Shown here in pieces: positions 18,535 through 51,281 of a stretch of 64,000 nt of DNA. This DNA is from Wenyingzhuangia sp. 2_MG-2023 (GTDB lineage Bacteria; Bacteroidota; Bacteroidia; Flavobacteriales; Flavobacteriaceae): contig NZ_JAUOSB010000001.1 in the NCBI RefSeq assembly GCF_030548295.1, positions 1 to 64,000 of the forward strand. Direction: 5' to 3'. Each line of letters opens with the position of its first letter. The first letter of the stretch is position 1. A program made the position numbers and the translations under genes. Below the pieces are notes generated by a model. The model saw nothing but the letters and a program-made list of their open reading frames with translations, did no database searches and was not told the origin of the DNA.

Positions 18535-20919
18535 ATGTCTGACTACGACTTTTCCACTCTAAATTCAAATGATTTTGAAAAACTAGTTTGTGATCTTCTT
18601 AATGAAAGTTCTTCGCTTGAAGGATCTGTTCCATTCCGAAGTTTTAAACCTGGGAAAGATGGTGGTATTGATCTTTTACATTCATCTGATAAAAATGAAA
18701 AAGAAATAGTAGTACAGATAAAACATTATTATAAAAGCTCTTTTGCAACTTTGAGGAGAGACTTAGAAAAAAATGAAGTATCCAAAGTCCATACTCTAAA
18801 CCCTAAAAAATATATTTTTGTAACATCCTTGGAACTTAGTTTTGAGAACAAACGTATAATTAAAAATATTTTTTCTCCATATATAAAAAACATCTCTGAC
18901 ATTTACGGTAAAGATGATTTAAACGACATACTAAGGAAAAATAAACATATTGAAGAAAACCATTTTAAACTATGGCTTTCGAGTGCAGTAGCTATTCAAA
19001 AAATTCAACAATATAAATTTATAGGTAGAAAAAATGAATTTCAAGAAAATCAAATTAAGCAAAAACTTCGACTATTTGTAATAACTAGAGAACATTACAA
19101 AGCTATCAATATTCTTAATGAAAATAATTTCTTAATTATAACTGGAGAACCCGGAGTTGGAAAAACCACACTTTCAGAAATTTTAATTTATAGATATCTA
19201 TCAAAAAAATATCAGTTAACGGTTATTTATGATGACATTAGAGAGATAGAGTTAGAATTAAAAGATGACGAATCAAAACAAATCTTTTATTTTGATGATT
19301 TCTTGGGGCATACACAAGCGGAAATTCAAAAATCTAAATCTGCTGAAACATATTTACTAAAGATTATTTCTAGAATAGAAAACTCTAAAAACAAACTTTT
19401 AATTCTTAATACACGAAAATTCATTCTTAATTCTTTTCTTGATGAATCGGAAAGATTTAAAAACTTCAATCCTTTAAGAGCTGAAGCTAAAATAGAACTA
19501 CATACATATAGTTATGGAGCTAAAAGAAGAATGCTAGACAATCATATAAATGAATTTGAACTTAGCTCTCAAAAAAAAGAAGTCCTTAAAACACTTGCTC
19601 ATTTAATATGTACCCATAGTAATTTTTCTCCTAGACATTTAGAATTCTTTACCAACAAACATTATATAGGTGAATTAGATACTTCATCTTTTCATTCATT
19701 TATAACCGAAAATTTAGCAAACCCCAAAAGAATTTGGGAACATGCTTACAATAAGCAGATTTCTGACAAAGAACGATTTTTGTTATACTCATTATACTCC
19801 CTAGGCTCTAAAGCTTCTAAAAAATCTCTTGAACTAGCATTTGATTCGAGAATTACTTATGAAGTCAGAGAGAATAATTTTTTTAAACCAACAAATCCTT
19901 TTAATGATAGTCTAAGAATTTTAAACGAAGGTTTTATCATAAGTTATAGCTATAATAATTATATCGAATTCAACTTTATAAACCCATCACTTGAAGATTT
20001 TCTTAAGTACTACATCGAAAACAATAATTATGAATTAACAAGAATATTATCTTCTTCAATATATATTGAACAATGGTTTGTTTTTTATAAACCATTTGAA
20101 AAAAAGAATATTGAAAAAAAATTAATAAATATCTTTATTTCTAAATTTTCAAAAAATAAAATATCTGAAGTCGAGAAATATAAAGCTATTTTATTTTTAG
20201 CTTCATATGCTCCTGATGAAATAAACGTAATACTAAAAATCTTAAAAAGTATTTATCAATGGGATTTTATTAGTGGAAATGTTATTCTTCAATCATACTC
20301 ATTACAATTTTTAAAAAATTCTATTAGAGAAAAAAAATTACTATCTATCATTTGCAAACTTGATTACGAGTATTTTTTGAGAATTATTCTTAACTGTAAA
20401 AGTATAGGTGAAGTTTCTAATTATATTCATTTATTCCAGAATAATTTAAATTTAAACTTTAAAGAAAAATTTAATTTTAACTCTTTAACATCCTCTAAAT
20501 ACTCTTACCTAATAAAGGAAATTTATTTGTCGTGTAAATTTCTATTAAAAAATGAAATTGAATTTCAATACAACTACCTTCTTAAATCAAACACTTACGT
20601 AGATGAGCATTTGGATGTGATTGATCGAATAGAAAACTATATATCCTTTTTTAACAACTACATGTTTGAGGATTTAAACATCAAATATGATATTCTATTA
20701 ACACCTAATTGGAATGACATAGCATTACAAAATAATTTGAATTCCTTAAGTTTAAAAAAAGAAAGCAACTCTATAGACGAAGATTTAACTCCAGAGTATT
20801 TTGACTTTGGCTACGAATACAACTATGACCAAGATTACGACTATGACCTTGAGGAGAAAACTAACGATTCATCGTACCTAATACGATTAAATGATAATCC
20901 GAACGATTTGCCATTTTAA
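18535..20919 (+). CDS. Mrr-type nuclease fused to STAND-like NTPase (candidate defence protein)
   Basis: This is a 794-residue single protein. Residues 1-130 resemble a restriction-endonuclease Mrr domain, with G-K-D-G-G-I-D46 and the Q61-I-K63 half of the D-(E/Q)-x-K nuclease core. Residues about 160-400 form an nSTAND3-like NTPase, with Walker A G204-E-P-G-V-G-K-T-T and Walker B F-Y-F-D-D around 251-255. The remaining 390 residues are helical, with no recognised repeat, and end in a Y/D-rich acidic stretch (about 756-783). Such fusions occur as one-gene anti-phage systems. It stands alone between housekeeping genes and the galactan locus, and is richer in A/T and lysine than its neighbours, hinting at transfer. 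Defence function is inferred. Confidence 0.75.
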   Translation: MSDYDFSTLNSNDFEKLVCDLLNESSSLEGSVPFRSFKPGKDGGIDLLHSSDKNEKEIVVQIKHYYKSSFATLRRDLEKNEVSKVHTLNPKKYIFVTSLELSFENKRIIKNIFSPYIKNISDIYGKDDLNDILRKNKHIEENHFKLWLSSAVAIQKIQQYKFIGRKNEFQENQIKQKLRLFVITREHYKAINILNENNFLIITGEPGVGKTTLSEILIYRYLSKKYQLTVIYDDIREIELELKDDESKQIFYFDDFLGHTQAEIQKSKSAETYLLKIISRIENSKNKLLILNTRKFILNSFLDESERFKNFNPLRAEAKIELHTYSYGAKRRMLDNHINEFELSSQKKEVLKTLAHLICTHSNFSPRHLEFFTNKHYIGELDTSSFHSFITENLANPKRIWEHAYNKQISDKERFLLYSLYSLGSKASKKSLELAFDSRITYEVRENNFFKPTNPFNDSLRILNEGFIISYSYNNYIEFNFINPSLEDFLKYYIENNNYELTRILSSSIYIEQWFVFYKPFEKKNIEKKLINIFISKFSKNKISEVEKYKAILFLASYAPDEINVILKILKSIYQWDFISGNVILQSYSLQFLKNSIREKKLLSIICKLDYEYFLRIILNCKSIGEVSNYIHLFQNNLNLNFKEKFNFNSLTSSKYSYLIKEIYLSCKFLLKNEIEFQYNYLLKSNTYVDEHLDVIDRIENYISFFNNYMFEDLNIKYDILLTPNWNDIALQNNLNSLSLKKESNSIDEDLTPEYFDFGYEYNYDQDYDYDLEEKTNDSSYLIRLNDNPNDLPF

Positions 20920-21023: not shown

Positions 21024-21053
21024 AAAAAACCTCGTAAAAAATACGAGGTTTTT
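21024..21053 (-). terminator. Terminator after the GH29 sub-operon
   Basis: AAAACCTCGTA pairs with TACGAGGTTTT around a short A-rich loop. Read on the minus strand it ends in a T-run just after the GH29 stop at 21072. It could also stop transcription from the plus strand. Confidence 0.75.
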
Positions 21054-21071
21054 AAATTTTTATATGATTTA

Positions 21072-22628
21072 CTACTCTTCTACTGGAGTAATTTTAAAAG
21101 CAAATGCATGCTTTCCTACTTTGTTTTTAGGAAGTTGGATGGTTAAACCTTTGCTATTTCTCTCAAATTTTAAATCTTGATTGTCTCCTAACAATTGAAT
21201 TGATTTTATTTTTTTAGGGTACAAACCATTGTCTTTTACCAAAGAATCTATGGTAAATTCTTTTCCTTCTGGCCAATCTAAGACAATAGCATATAAAATG
21301 TTCCCTTTGGTGGTAAAACGAATATCTTCCGCTGTATTGTCAGCATTTTTTTGTTCACTCAAATGTCCTTCAACTGCTTTAAAACTTCCCTCTCCATAAA
21401 TATCAAAAGTTCTAGTTCCGTAAATGGCTTCACCATTAGTTTGCAACCAAGCTCCCATTTCTAACAAACGCTCTTTTACAGGTTCTGGAATTTCTCCGTT
21501 GGCTTTGGGTGTAATATTTAACAATACAGCTCCGTTTTTACTAACCACATCTACTAAAAAATCTATTAACCTATTGGTAGATTTGTAATTTGGGTTTTTA
21601 ATATGCGACCAAGAATTCCAATCGATAGAATCATCTGTTAACCAAGGAAATTCTTTCTTTTCACTCATCCTAGCTCTTTCTAAATCTAACACAGCAGAAC
21701 CTTTGGCAAAGTCTTCAAATTTATAAGTAGATACTACTTCTTGATTTTTTTTATCTGCATGATTGTAATAATACTCTAGAAATTCTTGTCTGTGTTCTTC
21801 AGAAATAATATCCATTTTATTGTCAAACCAAACCAAGTCTGGATCGTATTTATTGATGATTTCTTTTAATCTATTCAACCATTCATCATCAAATTCTTTT
21901 CCTGCCATTGGATAATGAAATTTTTCTCCATTAGCAGTTGCATGATTTTTTTTATGTGGAAATTGAAAATCTCCTTTGTTTACTTTAGGTCCATACAAAT
22001 CTGCAAATTCAGGATCAGCAGCATCTGTAGTTTCATCCCATGTAGGAAACCATGCGTACAACCATTGTCTGTGGAAAGTAGCAATAAATTTCATATCTCG
22101 TTTTCTAATTTCTTTAGAAAGTTCTCCCATAATATCTCTTTTAGGCCCCATGTTTTTAGAGTTCCAACGAGTTAAATCACTATCCCACATAGCAAAACCA
22201 TCTGCATGTTCTGATACAGGTCCTGCAAATTTAGCTCCTGCTTTTTGGAATAAATCTGCCCATTCTGCAGCATCAAATTTTTCGGCAGTAAACATGGGAA
22301 TAAAATCTTTGTATCCAAATTTATCTAACGTTCCATAAGTTTCTACGTGATGTTTGTAATAGTGACTTGCCTCTCCATTTCTAGCTTCGGGATTGTCTTT
22401 GTTTACATACATCCAATGCGAATACCATTCATTTTTATATTCGGGTACAGAATAAGGTCCCCAATGACAATAAATTCCAAATTTTGCATCTAAAAACCAT
22501 TCTGGTGTTTGATGTTTTTTTAAAGATTCCCAATTTGCTTGATACGTCTTTTTTTCCTCTTTTTGCTGACAAGATGCTGTTATAAAAACAAGTGTTAAAA
22601 CAGCTATTAATTTTATATATTTTTTCAT
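21072..22628 (-). CDS. GH29 alpha-L-fucosidase/alpha-L-galactosidase-like lipoprotein
   Basis: This 518-residue exo-glycosidase has a lipoprotein signal with lipobox I-T-A-S-C20, so it is anchored in a membrane of the periplasm or cell surface. The family (beta/alpha)8 domain spans about residues 30-380: A-K-F-G-I-Y-C-H-W-G near 48, S-E-H-A-D-G-F-A-M-W-D near 139, and the candidate nucleophile D269 in D-L-V-W-F-D-N. A beta-sandwich follows. GH29 enzymes remove L-fucose; in a galactan locus the chemically close L-galactose of porphyran is an equally plausible substrate. It lies 51 bp after the broken GH2 gene and ends at a terminator. Confidence 0.88.
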   Translation of the reverse strand: MKKYIKLIAVLTLVFITASCQQKEEKKTYQANWESLKKHQTPEWFLDAKFGIYCHWGPYSVPEYKNEWYSHWMYVNKDNPEARNGEASHYYKHHVETYGTLDKFGYKDFIPMFTAEKFDAAEWADLFQKAGAKFAGPVSEHADGFAMWDSDLTRWNSKNMGPKRDIMGELSKEIRKRDMKFIATFHRQWLYAWFPTWDETTDAADPEFADLYGPKVNKGDFQFPHKKNHATANGEKFHYPMAGKEFDDEWLNRLKEIINKYDPDLVWFDNKMDIISEEHRQEFLEYYYNHADKKNQEVVSTYKFEDFAKGSAVLDLERARMSEKKEFPWLTDDSIDWNSWSHIKNPNYKSTNRLIDFLVDVVSKNGAVLLNITPKANGEIPEPVKERLLEMGAWLQTNGEAIYGTRTFDIYGEGSFKAVEGHLSEQKNADNTAEDIRFTTKGNILYAIVLDWPEGKEFTIDSLVKDNGLYPKKIKSIQLLGDNQDLKFERNSKGLTIQLPKNKVGKHAFAFKITPVEE

Positions 22629-50573: not shown

Positions 50574-51281
50574 TTAGTCTTGCAAAGCAAAAACTTTTTT
50601 CAACAACACAGAAGAACGCTCACTAATATTGGTTCTAATTTTTTGTTCTTCAATAGCAATCATTGTGTATACACCTTCCAAAGCTTTTTCCGTAACATAA
50701 TCTGTTAAATCTGGATTTACTTTACTAATAAACGGTATTTGATTGTACTTTGTAATTAAATTTGTCCAAATTTCTGCTGCTCCTACTTTATCAAAAGACT
50801 GTTTGATTACAGGATTGAATGAAGCATATAATTTGTCATTGGTAACATTGGTCAAATACGTTGTTGCAGCTTTGTTATCGCCCATCAAAATATTTTTCGC
50901 ATCGTTAAAACTCATTTGTTTTACAGCATCTACAAATATGGGTGTTGCTGTTTTCACAGCATCTTCAGCAGTTGCGTTTAAGGCAATCAAACCTTTGTCT
51001 GCCAAATCTCCCAAACCAAATTTCCGTAAAGTTTCATCTACTTTTTTCAATTCATCTGGCAATGCAATCCTTACCAAATCATTGCTATAAAAACCTTTTT
51101 CTTGAGTCAACTTACTTACCTCATCGGTAATTCCTTTATTCAAAGCCTCCTTCAATCCATTAGAAATGTCTAAGCTAGAAACTGGCTGTTCCATTATTGC
51201 TGGCAAACTCTGTACTATTTTATTCAATTCCGCACAACTTGTCAAAGTCAAAGCTAATGCCATTACTATAATTTTTTTCAT
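50574..51281 (-). CDS. DUF4197 lipoprotein
   Basis: This 235-residue lipoprotein (lipobox L-T-S-C16) matches DUF4197: G-L-K-E-A-L-x-x-G near residue 43, then I-A-L-P and K-x-x-x-x-L-R-K-F-G-L-G-D, with a helical remainder. Function is unknown. It is unlikely to belong to the galactan system. A 53-residue DUF5522-like gene lies 6 bp upstream on the same strand. Confidence 0.88.
   Translation of the reverse strand: MKKIIVMALALTLTSCAELNKIVQSLPAIMEQPVSSLDISNGLKEALNKGITDEVSKLTQEKGFYSNDLVRIALPDELKKVDETLRKFGLGDLADKGLIALNATAEDAVKTATPIFVDAVKQMSFNDAKNILMGDNKAATTYLTNVTNDKLYASFNPVIKQSFDKVGAAEIWTNLITKYNQIPFISKVNPDLTDYVTEKALEGVYTMIAIEEQKIRTNISERSSVLLKKVFALQD

What the first reader, a model, noticed from the sequence alone, without database searches (positions are those of the whole stretch)
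18535..20919. Lone Mrr-nuclease/STAND NTPase, a possible one-gene phage defence system
The fusion of a D-QxK nuclease domain, a Walker-type NTPase and a long unassigned helical sensor region follows the plan of STAND-type defence proteins, but it is shorter than typical Avs proteins and its C-terminal half shows no repeat I recognise. It ends with an unusual Y/D-rich tail that could be a regulatory or DNA-mimic-like element.
Basis: partly seen in the sequence, partly recalled or inferred. Interest (0 to 1): 0.6.

Follow-up and report, generated by a model that had tools for sequence, protein, structure and literature searches.

The report
Mrr nuclease immune receptor with SSB-like tail
A lone bacterial gene encodes a probable phage-sensing protein that cuts DNA when triggered; it belongs to a widespread but untested candidate family, and its unusual acidic tail ends like the tail of the cell's own single-stranded-DNA-binding protein.

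Summary
The ORF (18535-20919, 794 aa) is real: a Mrr-type nuclease domain fused to an nSTAND3 NTPase, a winged-helix-like segment, a helical C-terminal half and a disordered acidic tail. It matches PADLOC's candidate PDC-S73 over residues 1-713 (E 1.3e-130), as do all 28 proteins aligned. Nuclease and Walker residues are invariant in 28 of 28. The gene is patchy: 0 of 6 congeners have it, and the 5 whose site can be read carry other genes or a short gap there. No partner gene recurs among relatives; some sit beside known defence genes.

The tail is the new part. Behind a sensor half too variable to align, most members end in an acidic linker and a terminal motif [IVLYM]xx[LMI]F: 38 of 46, 11 of 12 held-out plasmid copies, 25 of 465 control ORFs. 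The window protein and its sister end instead in NDLPF/DELPF, like the host SSB tip DDLPF. I infer a guard-type receptor; an SSB-tail mimic is the boldest reading, unproven.

The parts
18535..20919 (+). whole gene: Mrr nuclease - nSTAND3 NTPase - helical sensor - acidic tail, 794 aa
   Evidence: ORF; PDC-S73, residues 1-713, E 1.3e-130
18556..18834 (+). Mrr-type nuclease domain (residues 8-100); E15, D46, Q61, K63 invariant in 28 of 28 aligned proteins
19075..19551 (+). nSTAND3 NTPase (residues 181-339)
19144..19167 (+). Walker A GEPGVGKT (residues 204-211)
19294..19308 (+). Walker B DDFLG (residues 254-258)
19726..19980 (+). winged-helix-like segment (about residues 398-482), helices plus a beta hairpin, as in NLR-type NTPase modules (assignment inferred)
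   Evidence: secondary structure; VIA alignment to RPP1 over model 152-531
19984..20676 (+). helical C-terminal region, putative phage sensor (residues 484-714); hypervariable in the family
20713..20916 (+). disordered acidic Y/D-rich tail (residues 727-794)
20902..20916 (+). terminal NDLPF, like the tip of the host SSB (IIDDLPF)

Best explanation
This is a single-gene STAND (NLR-like) anti-phage receptor of the PDC-S73 family. At rest the nSTAND3 NTPase holds the protein in a closed form. A phage product binds the variable helical C-terminal half (inferred), the NTPase exchanges nucleotide and the protein oligomerises (inferred from STAND proteins generally). The clustered N-terminal Mrr-type nuclease domains then cut DNA, ending the infection, probably at the cost of the cell (inferred from Avs1-Avs4). 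The acidic tail with its conserved terminal tip most likely acts as a regulatory peptide: either it docks on the protein's own body or nuclease groove to keep it off, or it hooks a DNA-replication partner. Shown here: architecture, invariant catalytic residues, hypervariable sensor, conserved tip, patchy presence. Not shown: trigger, nuclease activity, defence.
For: PDC-S73 match over 1-713 and in 28 of 28 aligned proteins. nSTAND3 and Mrr_cat domains. Invariant D-QxK, Walker A and B residues. Foldseek's top hit Avs4 (E 1.1e-8, TM-score by query only 0.27), then SAMD9 and Avs5; relative L052 also gives Avs4 first, then Avs5. VIA puts plant and animal NLR-type NTPases first for the window model (RPP1 Z 18.1, rmsd 4.1, 297 aligned). 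Sensor half far more variable than the N-terminal 500 residues. Absent in 6 of 6 congeners; at the site 5 of 5 readable ones hold other genes or a short intergenic stretch. Lowest GC of 42 ORFs, 25.9% against a median 33.7%. 38 of 72,556 plasmid records match, some over the nuclease module only. Some relatives lie beside PDC-S41 and a dCTPase-model gene, LmuB, SoFic, or GajA/OLD-type ATPases. Avs1-Avs4 nucleases and their cell-death outcome: passages of PMC12931631.
Against: No phage assay exists here. The sensor half of the window model is low-confidence, so no trigger can be guessed. The window's own neighbourhood is a polysaccharide-use cluster, not a defence island, and the sister L095 lies between a DEAD-box RNA helicase-like gene and an arylsulfatase-like one, with none of its four scanned neighbours a clear defence gene. 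The neighbour survey has no matched random control, and other relatives lie beside housekeeping genes. VIA for L052 ranks many AAA+ proteins level with Avs4. A Mrr-STAND protein could also act against plasmids or on host DNA damage.
Confidence: 0.78

Rival explanations
1. SSB-tail mimic as bait or hook: in the window protein and its sister L095 the acidic tail ends like the SSB tip, so proteins that dock on SSB tails (phage replication or recombination factors, or host ones such as RecO and PriA) bind the receptor, either triggering it as an integrated decoy or bringing its nuclease to replication forks.
For: Window ends NDLPF; L095 (45% identical over 1-750, another genus, sister with 100/98 support) ends DDEDELPF; the own SSB ends IIDDLPF. 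Both have long acidic tails, as E. coli SSB has a 56-residue linker plus 9-residue tip (PMC7145534, abstract and passages). Only these 2 of 46 family proteins end so.
Against: One evolutionary event only. 1 of 465 control ORFs also ends so, which would give about 0.1 such end by chance among 46 proteins. The motif was chosen after seeing it. The next relatives L096 and L098 end before the tail. The window has ND where SSB has DD. No SSB-docking gene lies beside L095.
Confidence: 0.12
2. Autoinhibition: the acidic tail sits in the protein's own DNA-binding groove and the conserved tip clamps it there until the sensor is engaged, as the SSB tip can occupy SSB's own DNA-binding domain.
For: Net acidity of the last 50 residues: family median 10, control median -1. 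In the model of relative L052, confidence recovers at the tip (79, then 73) after a linker dip (55), as for a docked peptide. The SSB precedent is in passages of PMC7145534.
Against: No contact map was available; DSSP calls it one continuous helix in that model. 7 of 46 family proteins have a net acidity of 2 or less. In the window model the tail is under 50 throughout and the family's terminal F is N786.
Confidence: 0.3
3. Not defence against phage by protein sensing but a stand-alone type IV-like restriction protein that cuts modified or plasmid DNA, with the NTPase as a switch.
For: 9 of the 12 plasmid relatives read are annotated 'restriction endonuclease'; Mrr_cat is annotated as a restriction endonuclease family.
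Against: No DNA-recognition domain was found beside the nuclease; the NTPase is a STAND type by Pfam; sensor variability fits protein sensing better (inference).
Confidence: 0.12

Closest known systems
PADLOC PDC-S73 (phage-defence candidate; meaning of the code recalled)
   Same: Match over residues 1-713 to profile positions 1-697 of 752; 28 of 28 aligned proteins match
   Different: Nothing in the match separates it; in the window protein the match stops before the tail. No paper in the library holds the name
Avs4 (AVAST type 4)
   Same: Nuclease and STAND NTPase in the same order (Mrr type of Avs4 recalled); first Foldseek hit of both models; VIA aligns L052 to Avs4 2-691, but at rmsd 22.4 and level with many AAA+ proteins
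   Different: About half the length (Avs4 chains of 8dgf 1534-1541 residues); no Avs model among the six PADLOC families listed for it
Avs5 (SIR2-STAND)
   Same: nSTAND3 NTPase, PF20720, as passages of PMC12931631 state for Avs5; chains of similar length, 764-833
   Different: N-terminal SIR2 NADase there, Mrr nuclease here; the importance of the C-terminal end is described for Avs5 and untested here
PADLOC Aga_TIR-PNTD1-PNTD2 and Aga_REase-TIR-PNTD1-PNTD2 models (link to short prokaryotic Argonautes recalled)
   Same: Share residues 3-178 or 3-151, the nuclease module, in 28 of 28; TIR-domain proteins on rhizobial plasmids match 4-157
   Different: The match does not reach the NTPase; different partner domains

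Membership tests
PDC-S73 | match to the PADLOC profile over nearly its length | tested here: met
   residues 1-713 to profile 1-697 of 752, E 1.3e-130
PDC-S73 | single gene without a conserved partner | tested here: met
   298 neighbouring ORFs within 6 kb of relatives; the largest recurrent family is in 5 loci
PDC-S73 | protects against phage | not testable with these tools
   no assay; no paper holding 'PDC-S73' in the library
STAND NTPase | P-loop NTPase with Walker A and B plus winged-helix-like arm | tested here: met
   PF20720 E 4.1e-43; invariant motifs; NLR/CED-4 folds at Z 16-18
Avs5 | nSTAND3 NTPase | tested here: met
   Avs5 definition from passages of PMC12931631
Avs5 | N-terminal SIR2 NADase effector | tested here: not met
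   Mrr_cat at the N-terminus, no SIR2 in the Pfam list
Avs4 | Mrr-type nuclease plus STAND NTPase in that order (recalled) | tested here: met
   Foldseek first hit
Avs4 | very long C-terminal sensor, chain of about 1,500 residues | tested here: not met
   794 aa here; 8dgf chains 1534-1541
Avs4 | triggered by phage portal protein | not testable with these tools
   8dgf is titled Avs4 bound to phage portal; no assay here
Mrr type IV restriction enzyme | catalytic domain with D...QxK | tested here: met
   D46, Q61, K63 invariant in 28 of 28
Mrr type IV restriction enzyme | separate DNA-recognition domain N-terminal to the nuclease (recalled) | tested here: not met
   Mrr_cat begins at residue 8; no other N-terminal domain listed
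SSB tail mimic | disordered acidic linker ending like the SSB tip, [D/E][I/L/V]PF | tested here: met
SSB tail mimic | binds SSB-interacting proteins | not testable with these tools
   no complex prediction or binding assay available

The most novel reading that the evidence does not exclude
PDC-S73 proteins are receptors with a C-terminal bait: a hypervariable sensor followed by an acidic tether and a conserved terminal peptide that copies a docking peptide of the host. In the window's clade the bait has been exchanged for a copy of the SSB tail tip, so the receptor guards the SSB interaction hub that phage replication and recombination proteins exploit, as integrated decoys do in plant NLRs.
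Probability: 0.1. Interest if true: 0.85.

Novelty: new variant of a known kind. Interest (0 to 1): 0.45.

Why it matters
The protein extends a widespread candidate family (several phyla) for which my paper searches showed no test. The conserved terminal tip, lying behind the least conserved part of the protein, gives the family a concrete feature to test: delete or swap about ten residues and ask whether the receptor becomes toxic, blind or unchanged. If the SSB-like tip of the window clade is a bait, bacteria would use integrated decoys as plant NLRs do, and SSB-docking phage proteins would be the trigger to look for first.

Tried and rejected
Viral contigs: no relative by tblastn (the second a needless repeat). 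Phage records: 2 of 50,697 matched over about 64%; the one I read, L126, ends in the same 45 residues as the plasmid copy L116, so I do not count it as a phage gene; the other was not read. Solved structures by sequence: P-loop-type matches led both lists, and no Avs protein stands among the 11 and 60 rows shown. Sensor fold: the VIA lists cover mainly 152-519 and 151-460 of the two models, so the sensor is barely tested and I claim no new fold.

Considered and rejected: that NDLPF is just the family tip. The window has N786 where the family has F; the sister's tail keeps two internal NLFDDY copies and then ends DELPF. Considered: a broken gene. No, the frame is open and the active-site residues are present. 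L097 is broken (three TAA, and its contig ends soon after); L098 shows two stops where the match runs past its open frame, so its missing tail may be a loss; neither was read through. Considered: that L095's helicase neighbour is RecQ, an SSB partner. No, DEAD-box RNA helicase models score far higher.

family set: 39 kept of 46 rows, 7 dropped for length (L036, L054, L055, L066, L069, L073, L075); L002 and L057 are the same protein. (46 proteins) leave out L002, L035, L097, L102 and those seven. Without the tip: 8 of 46 (window, L059, L062, L065, L070, L095, L096, L098). Held-out set: 12 of 38 plasmid records read; L114 is 73% identical to a family member, the other ten positives at most 51%. 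The PADLOC/Pfam neighbour scans used 135 of 298 ORFs: at most the two closest per side, 8 of 143 dropped as very long or spurious to meet the size limit. Of ten neighbours scanned singly, five had no PADLOC match at 1e-8. Paper searches; absence from print is claimed only for these terms in this library.

Full report
OBSERVATION. The ORF is at 18535-20919 on the + strand, 794 residues, ATG start. Pfam finds nSTAND3 at 181-339 (E 4.1e-43) and Mrr_cat at 8-100 (E 8.5e-7), both over the curated cut-offs.

WHAT IT IS. PADLOC, a library of defence models, matches residues 1-713 to PDC-S73 with E 1.3e-130. All 28 proteins of an alignment of the window with 27 relatives from named genomes match the same model. 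The code stands for a single-gene phage-defence candidate (meaning recalled); no paper in the library holds the term. Passages of PMC7159879 and PMC8195603 describe Mrr-like and other REase effectors and STAND NTPases as recurrent parts of prokaryotic conflict systems in general; I saw passages only, and none on this protein.

RELATIVES. 38 of 72,556 plasmid records match, some only over the nuclease module. In whole genomes it is rare and patchy: 3 of 99 relatives including the window's own; 16 of 395 of the phylum at E 1e-3, of which 9 at E below 1e-60; 9 of 397 of the family at E 1e-20; 5 of 395 of the order at E 1e-80; 1 of 13 and 1 of 4 in two further genera at E 1e-60. Searches scored only some first-look candidates, so these are lower bounds.

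SITE. None of six congeners has the gene (G005 is 85% complete). All six keep the upstream block of rod-shape-type, pyrF-like and periplasmic-binding-like genes (names recalled except Peripla_BP_2). Downstream they differ. G006 and G002 have the same glycoside hydrolase cluster (first gene 97% and 84% identical) with other genes in the slot. G001 and G003 pass after about 110 and 90 bases to the DUF4197 gene that lies at 50574 in the window. G004 has a different convergent gene. In G005 the contig ends within 310 bases, so its site cannot be judged. The slot is variable, and the gene is an accessory there. Its GC, 25.9%, is the lowest of 42 ORFs (median 33.7%).

ANATOMY. E15, D46, Q61, K63, G204, P206, G207, G209, K210, D254, D255, F256, R294, H361, P366 and R367 are among the columns invariant in 28 of 28. 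The AlphaFold2 model (28 sequences, mean pLDDT 72.8) is mostly at 65-95 over 1-510, weak and helical from 520 to 714, and below 50 from 727. Foldseek's first hits are Avs4 (E 1.1e-8), human SAMD9 and Avs5, at TM-scores by query of only 0.18-0.32. VIA-align 2 ranks plant and animal NLR-type NTPases first: RPP1 Z 18.1, rmsd 4.1, 297 aligned. A second model, of relative L052, has mean pLDDT 84.6 and a confident helical C-terminal half. Its first Foldseek hit is again Avs4 (E 2.4e-6), then Avs5. VIA for L052 puts DnaA and many AAA+ proteins first at Z 12.4-13.5; Avs4 stands at rank 12, Z 12.9, over model 1-702 but at rmsd 22.4, level with them. The general plan is that of a small Avs: nuclease, switch, helical sensor.

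SENSOR. The mean share of the commonest residue is mostly 0.4-0.6 per 25-column block up to about residue 500 (one block 0.30, one 0.37) and falls to 0.23-0.31 in the C-terminal part; it is 0.44 in the last, nine-column block, the tip. By BLASTP at E 1e-3 the window's C-terminal part finds none of the other 27 in this set, while residues 501-735 remain 28%, 28% and 30% identical with L095, L096 and L098. Lengths in the set of 46 are 736-818; two longer forms (L073, L102) were left out of that set. Near-constant length with free sequence fits a diversifying sensor.

TAIL. Net acidity of the last 50 residues has a median of 10 in 39 family rows and -1 in 465 control ORFs (99th percentile 7); 7 of 46 family proteins are at 2 or less. 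The pattern [IVLYM]xx[LMI]F within the last 21 residues is in 33 of 39 and, in the larger set, 38 of 46; 32 of 40 after dropping close copies, against a mean of 1.1 and a maximum of 6 of 40 for shuffled tails, and 0-4 of 40 at other offsets. In controls it is in 25 of 465. The pattern was chosen on those sequences, so I tested it on plasmid copies not used before: 11 of 12 have it; the twelfth, L119, is a 538-residue annotated CDS that ends early. One of the eleven, L114, is 73% identical to a family member; the rest are at most 51%.

WINDOW CLADE. The window protein lacks the motif: N786 stands where the family has F. It ends NDLPF. Its sister L095, 45% identical over 1-750 and from another genus, ends DDEDELPF. 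The window genome's SSB ends IIDDLPF; a second SSB-like protein has no such end. No other of the 46 ends in [D/E], at most one residue, then [I/L/V/M/F]PF; 1 of 465 controls does, an AAA_25 protein. At that control rate about 0.1 such ends would be expected among 46. The next branches, L096 and L098, stop before the tail, and a separate clade (L029, L044, L045) keeps the family tip but ends VPF or APF. This is one event, seen after the fact: a lead, not a proof. E. coli SSB has a 9-residue tip behind a 56-residue disordered linker; its tip recruits at least 17 partners and can also occupy SSB's own DNA-binding domain (PMC7145534: abstract and passages). Both roles suggest tests here: hook or bait, and self-inhibition.

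CONTEXT OF RELATIVES. 298 ORFs within 6 kb show no shared partner; the largest recurrent set is an ATPase family in 5 loci, and GajA, Old and AriA models each match up to 4 of 135 neighbours scanned, AAA_15 matches 5. Some relatives lie beside defence genes: PDC-S41 (E 9e-290) and a dCTPase model (E 9.8e-115) on either side of L098's gene, LmuB (E 8.5e-66) and SoFic (E 1.1e-20) beside L044's. A reverse transcriptase lies beside L103's (best model the generic RT, E 1.8e-72, so it may be an intron's). Five of the ten neighbours scanned singly had no PADLOC match, and others are housekeeping genes. The sister L095 lies between a DEAD-box RNA helicase-like gene and, two genes on, an arylsulfatase-like one: like the window's, not a defence island. 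I had no matched random control for this survey.

MECHANISM. I infer: ligand to the helical half, nucleotide exchange, oligomerisation, DNA cutting by the clustered nuclease domains. In Avs5, which shares nSTAND3, deletion of the last 17 residues of PaAvs5-1 is among those described in a section whose title calls the C-terminal repeat domain essential for activation (PMC12931631, passages), so an important C-terminal end has a precedent. The role of the tail here is open; I favour self-inhibition or docking over an SSB bait.

VERDICT. A well-supported member of a known candidate kind, with a common terminal tip and a clade-specific SSB-like end that none of my paper searches brought up. Interest moderate.

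Noticed in passing
window 21030-21048: Inverted repeat CCTCGTA...TACGAGG with A and T runs at its sides, between the two convergent genes; looks like a shared terminator (read).
   Followed up: no
L092 7176-8630: A congener (G003) carries a SLFN_AlbA_2 plus HATPase_c_4 gene about 1 kb from the same variable site.
   Followed up: partly
L095 C-terminal tail: Two near copies of the family tip, FHNLFDDY and FNNLFDDY, lie inside the tail before the DELPF end, as if the old tip was duplicated and then overtaken by a new end.
   Followed up: partly
L051 1888-3267 (-): The only control ORF with an SSB-like end (NEIPF) is an AAA_25 protein.
   Followed up: partly
rhizobial and related plasmids, hits H26-H29 (TIR-annotated) and H30 (no annotation): The nuclease module (about residues 4-157) also occurs in TIR-domain proteins, so the effector looks like a swapped cassette.
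   Followed up: no
L073 8001-11507 and L102: Longer family forms, 1168 and about 1113-1135 residues, in Pedobacter cryoconitis and an unnamed member of the window's family.
   Followed up: no
L126 (MT836015.1): A record deposited as an unverified bacteriophage holds a copy whose last 45 residues equal those of a Pseudomonas fluorescens plasmid copy (L116); it may be mislabelled plasmid DNA.
   Followed up: partly
window about 21000-50500: Polysaccharide-use cluster (inferred); 22 matches, some partial, to the gene of 21072-22628 in the window's genome; the cluster is missing from the same site in G001 and G003.
   Followed up: no
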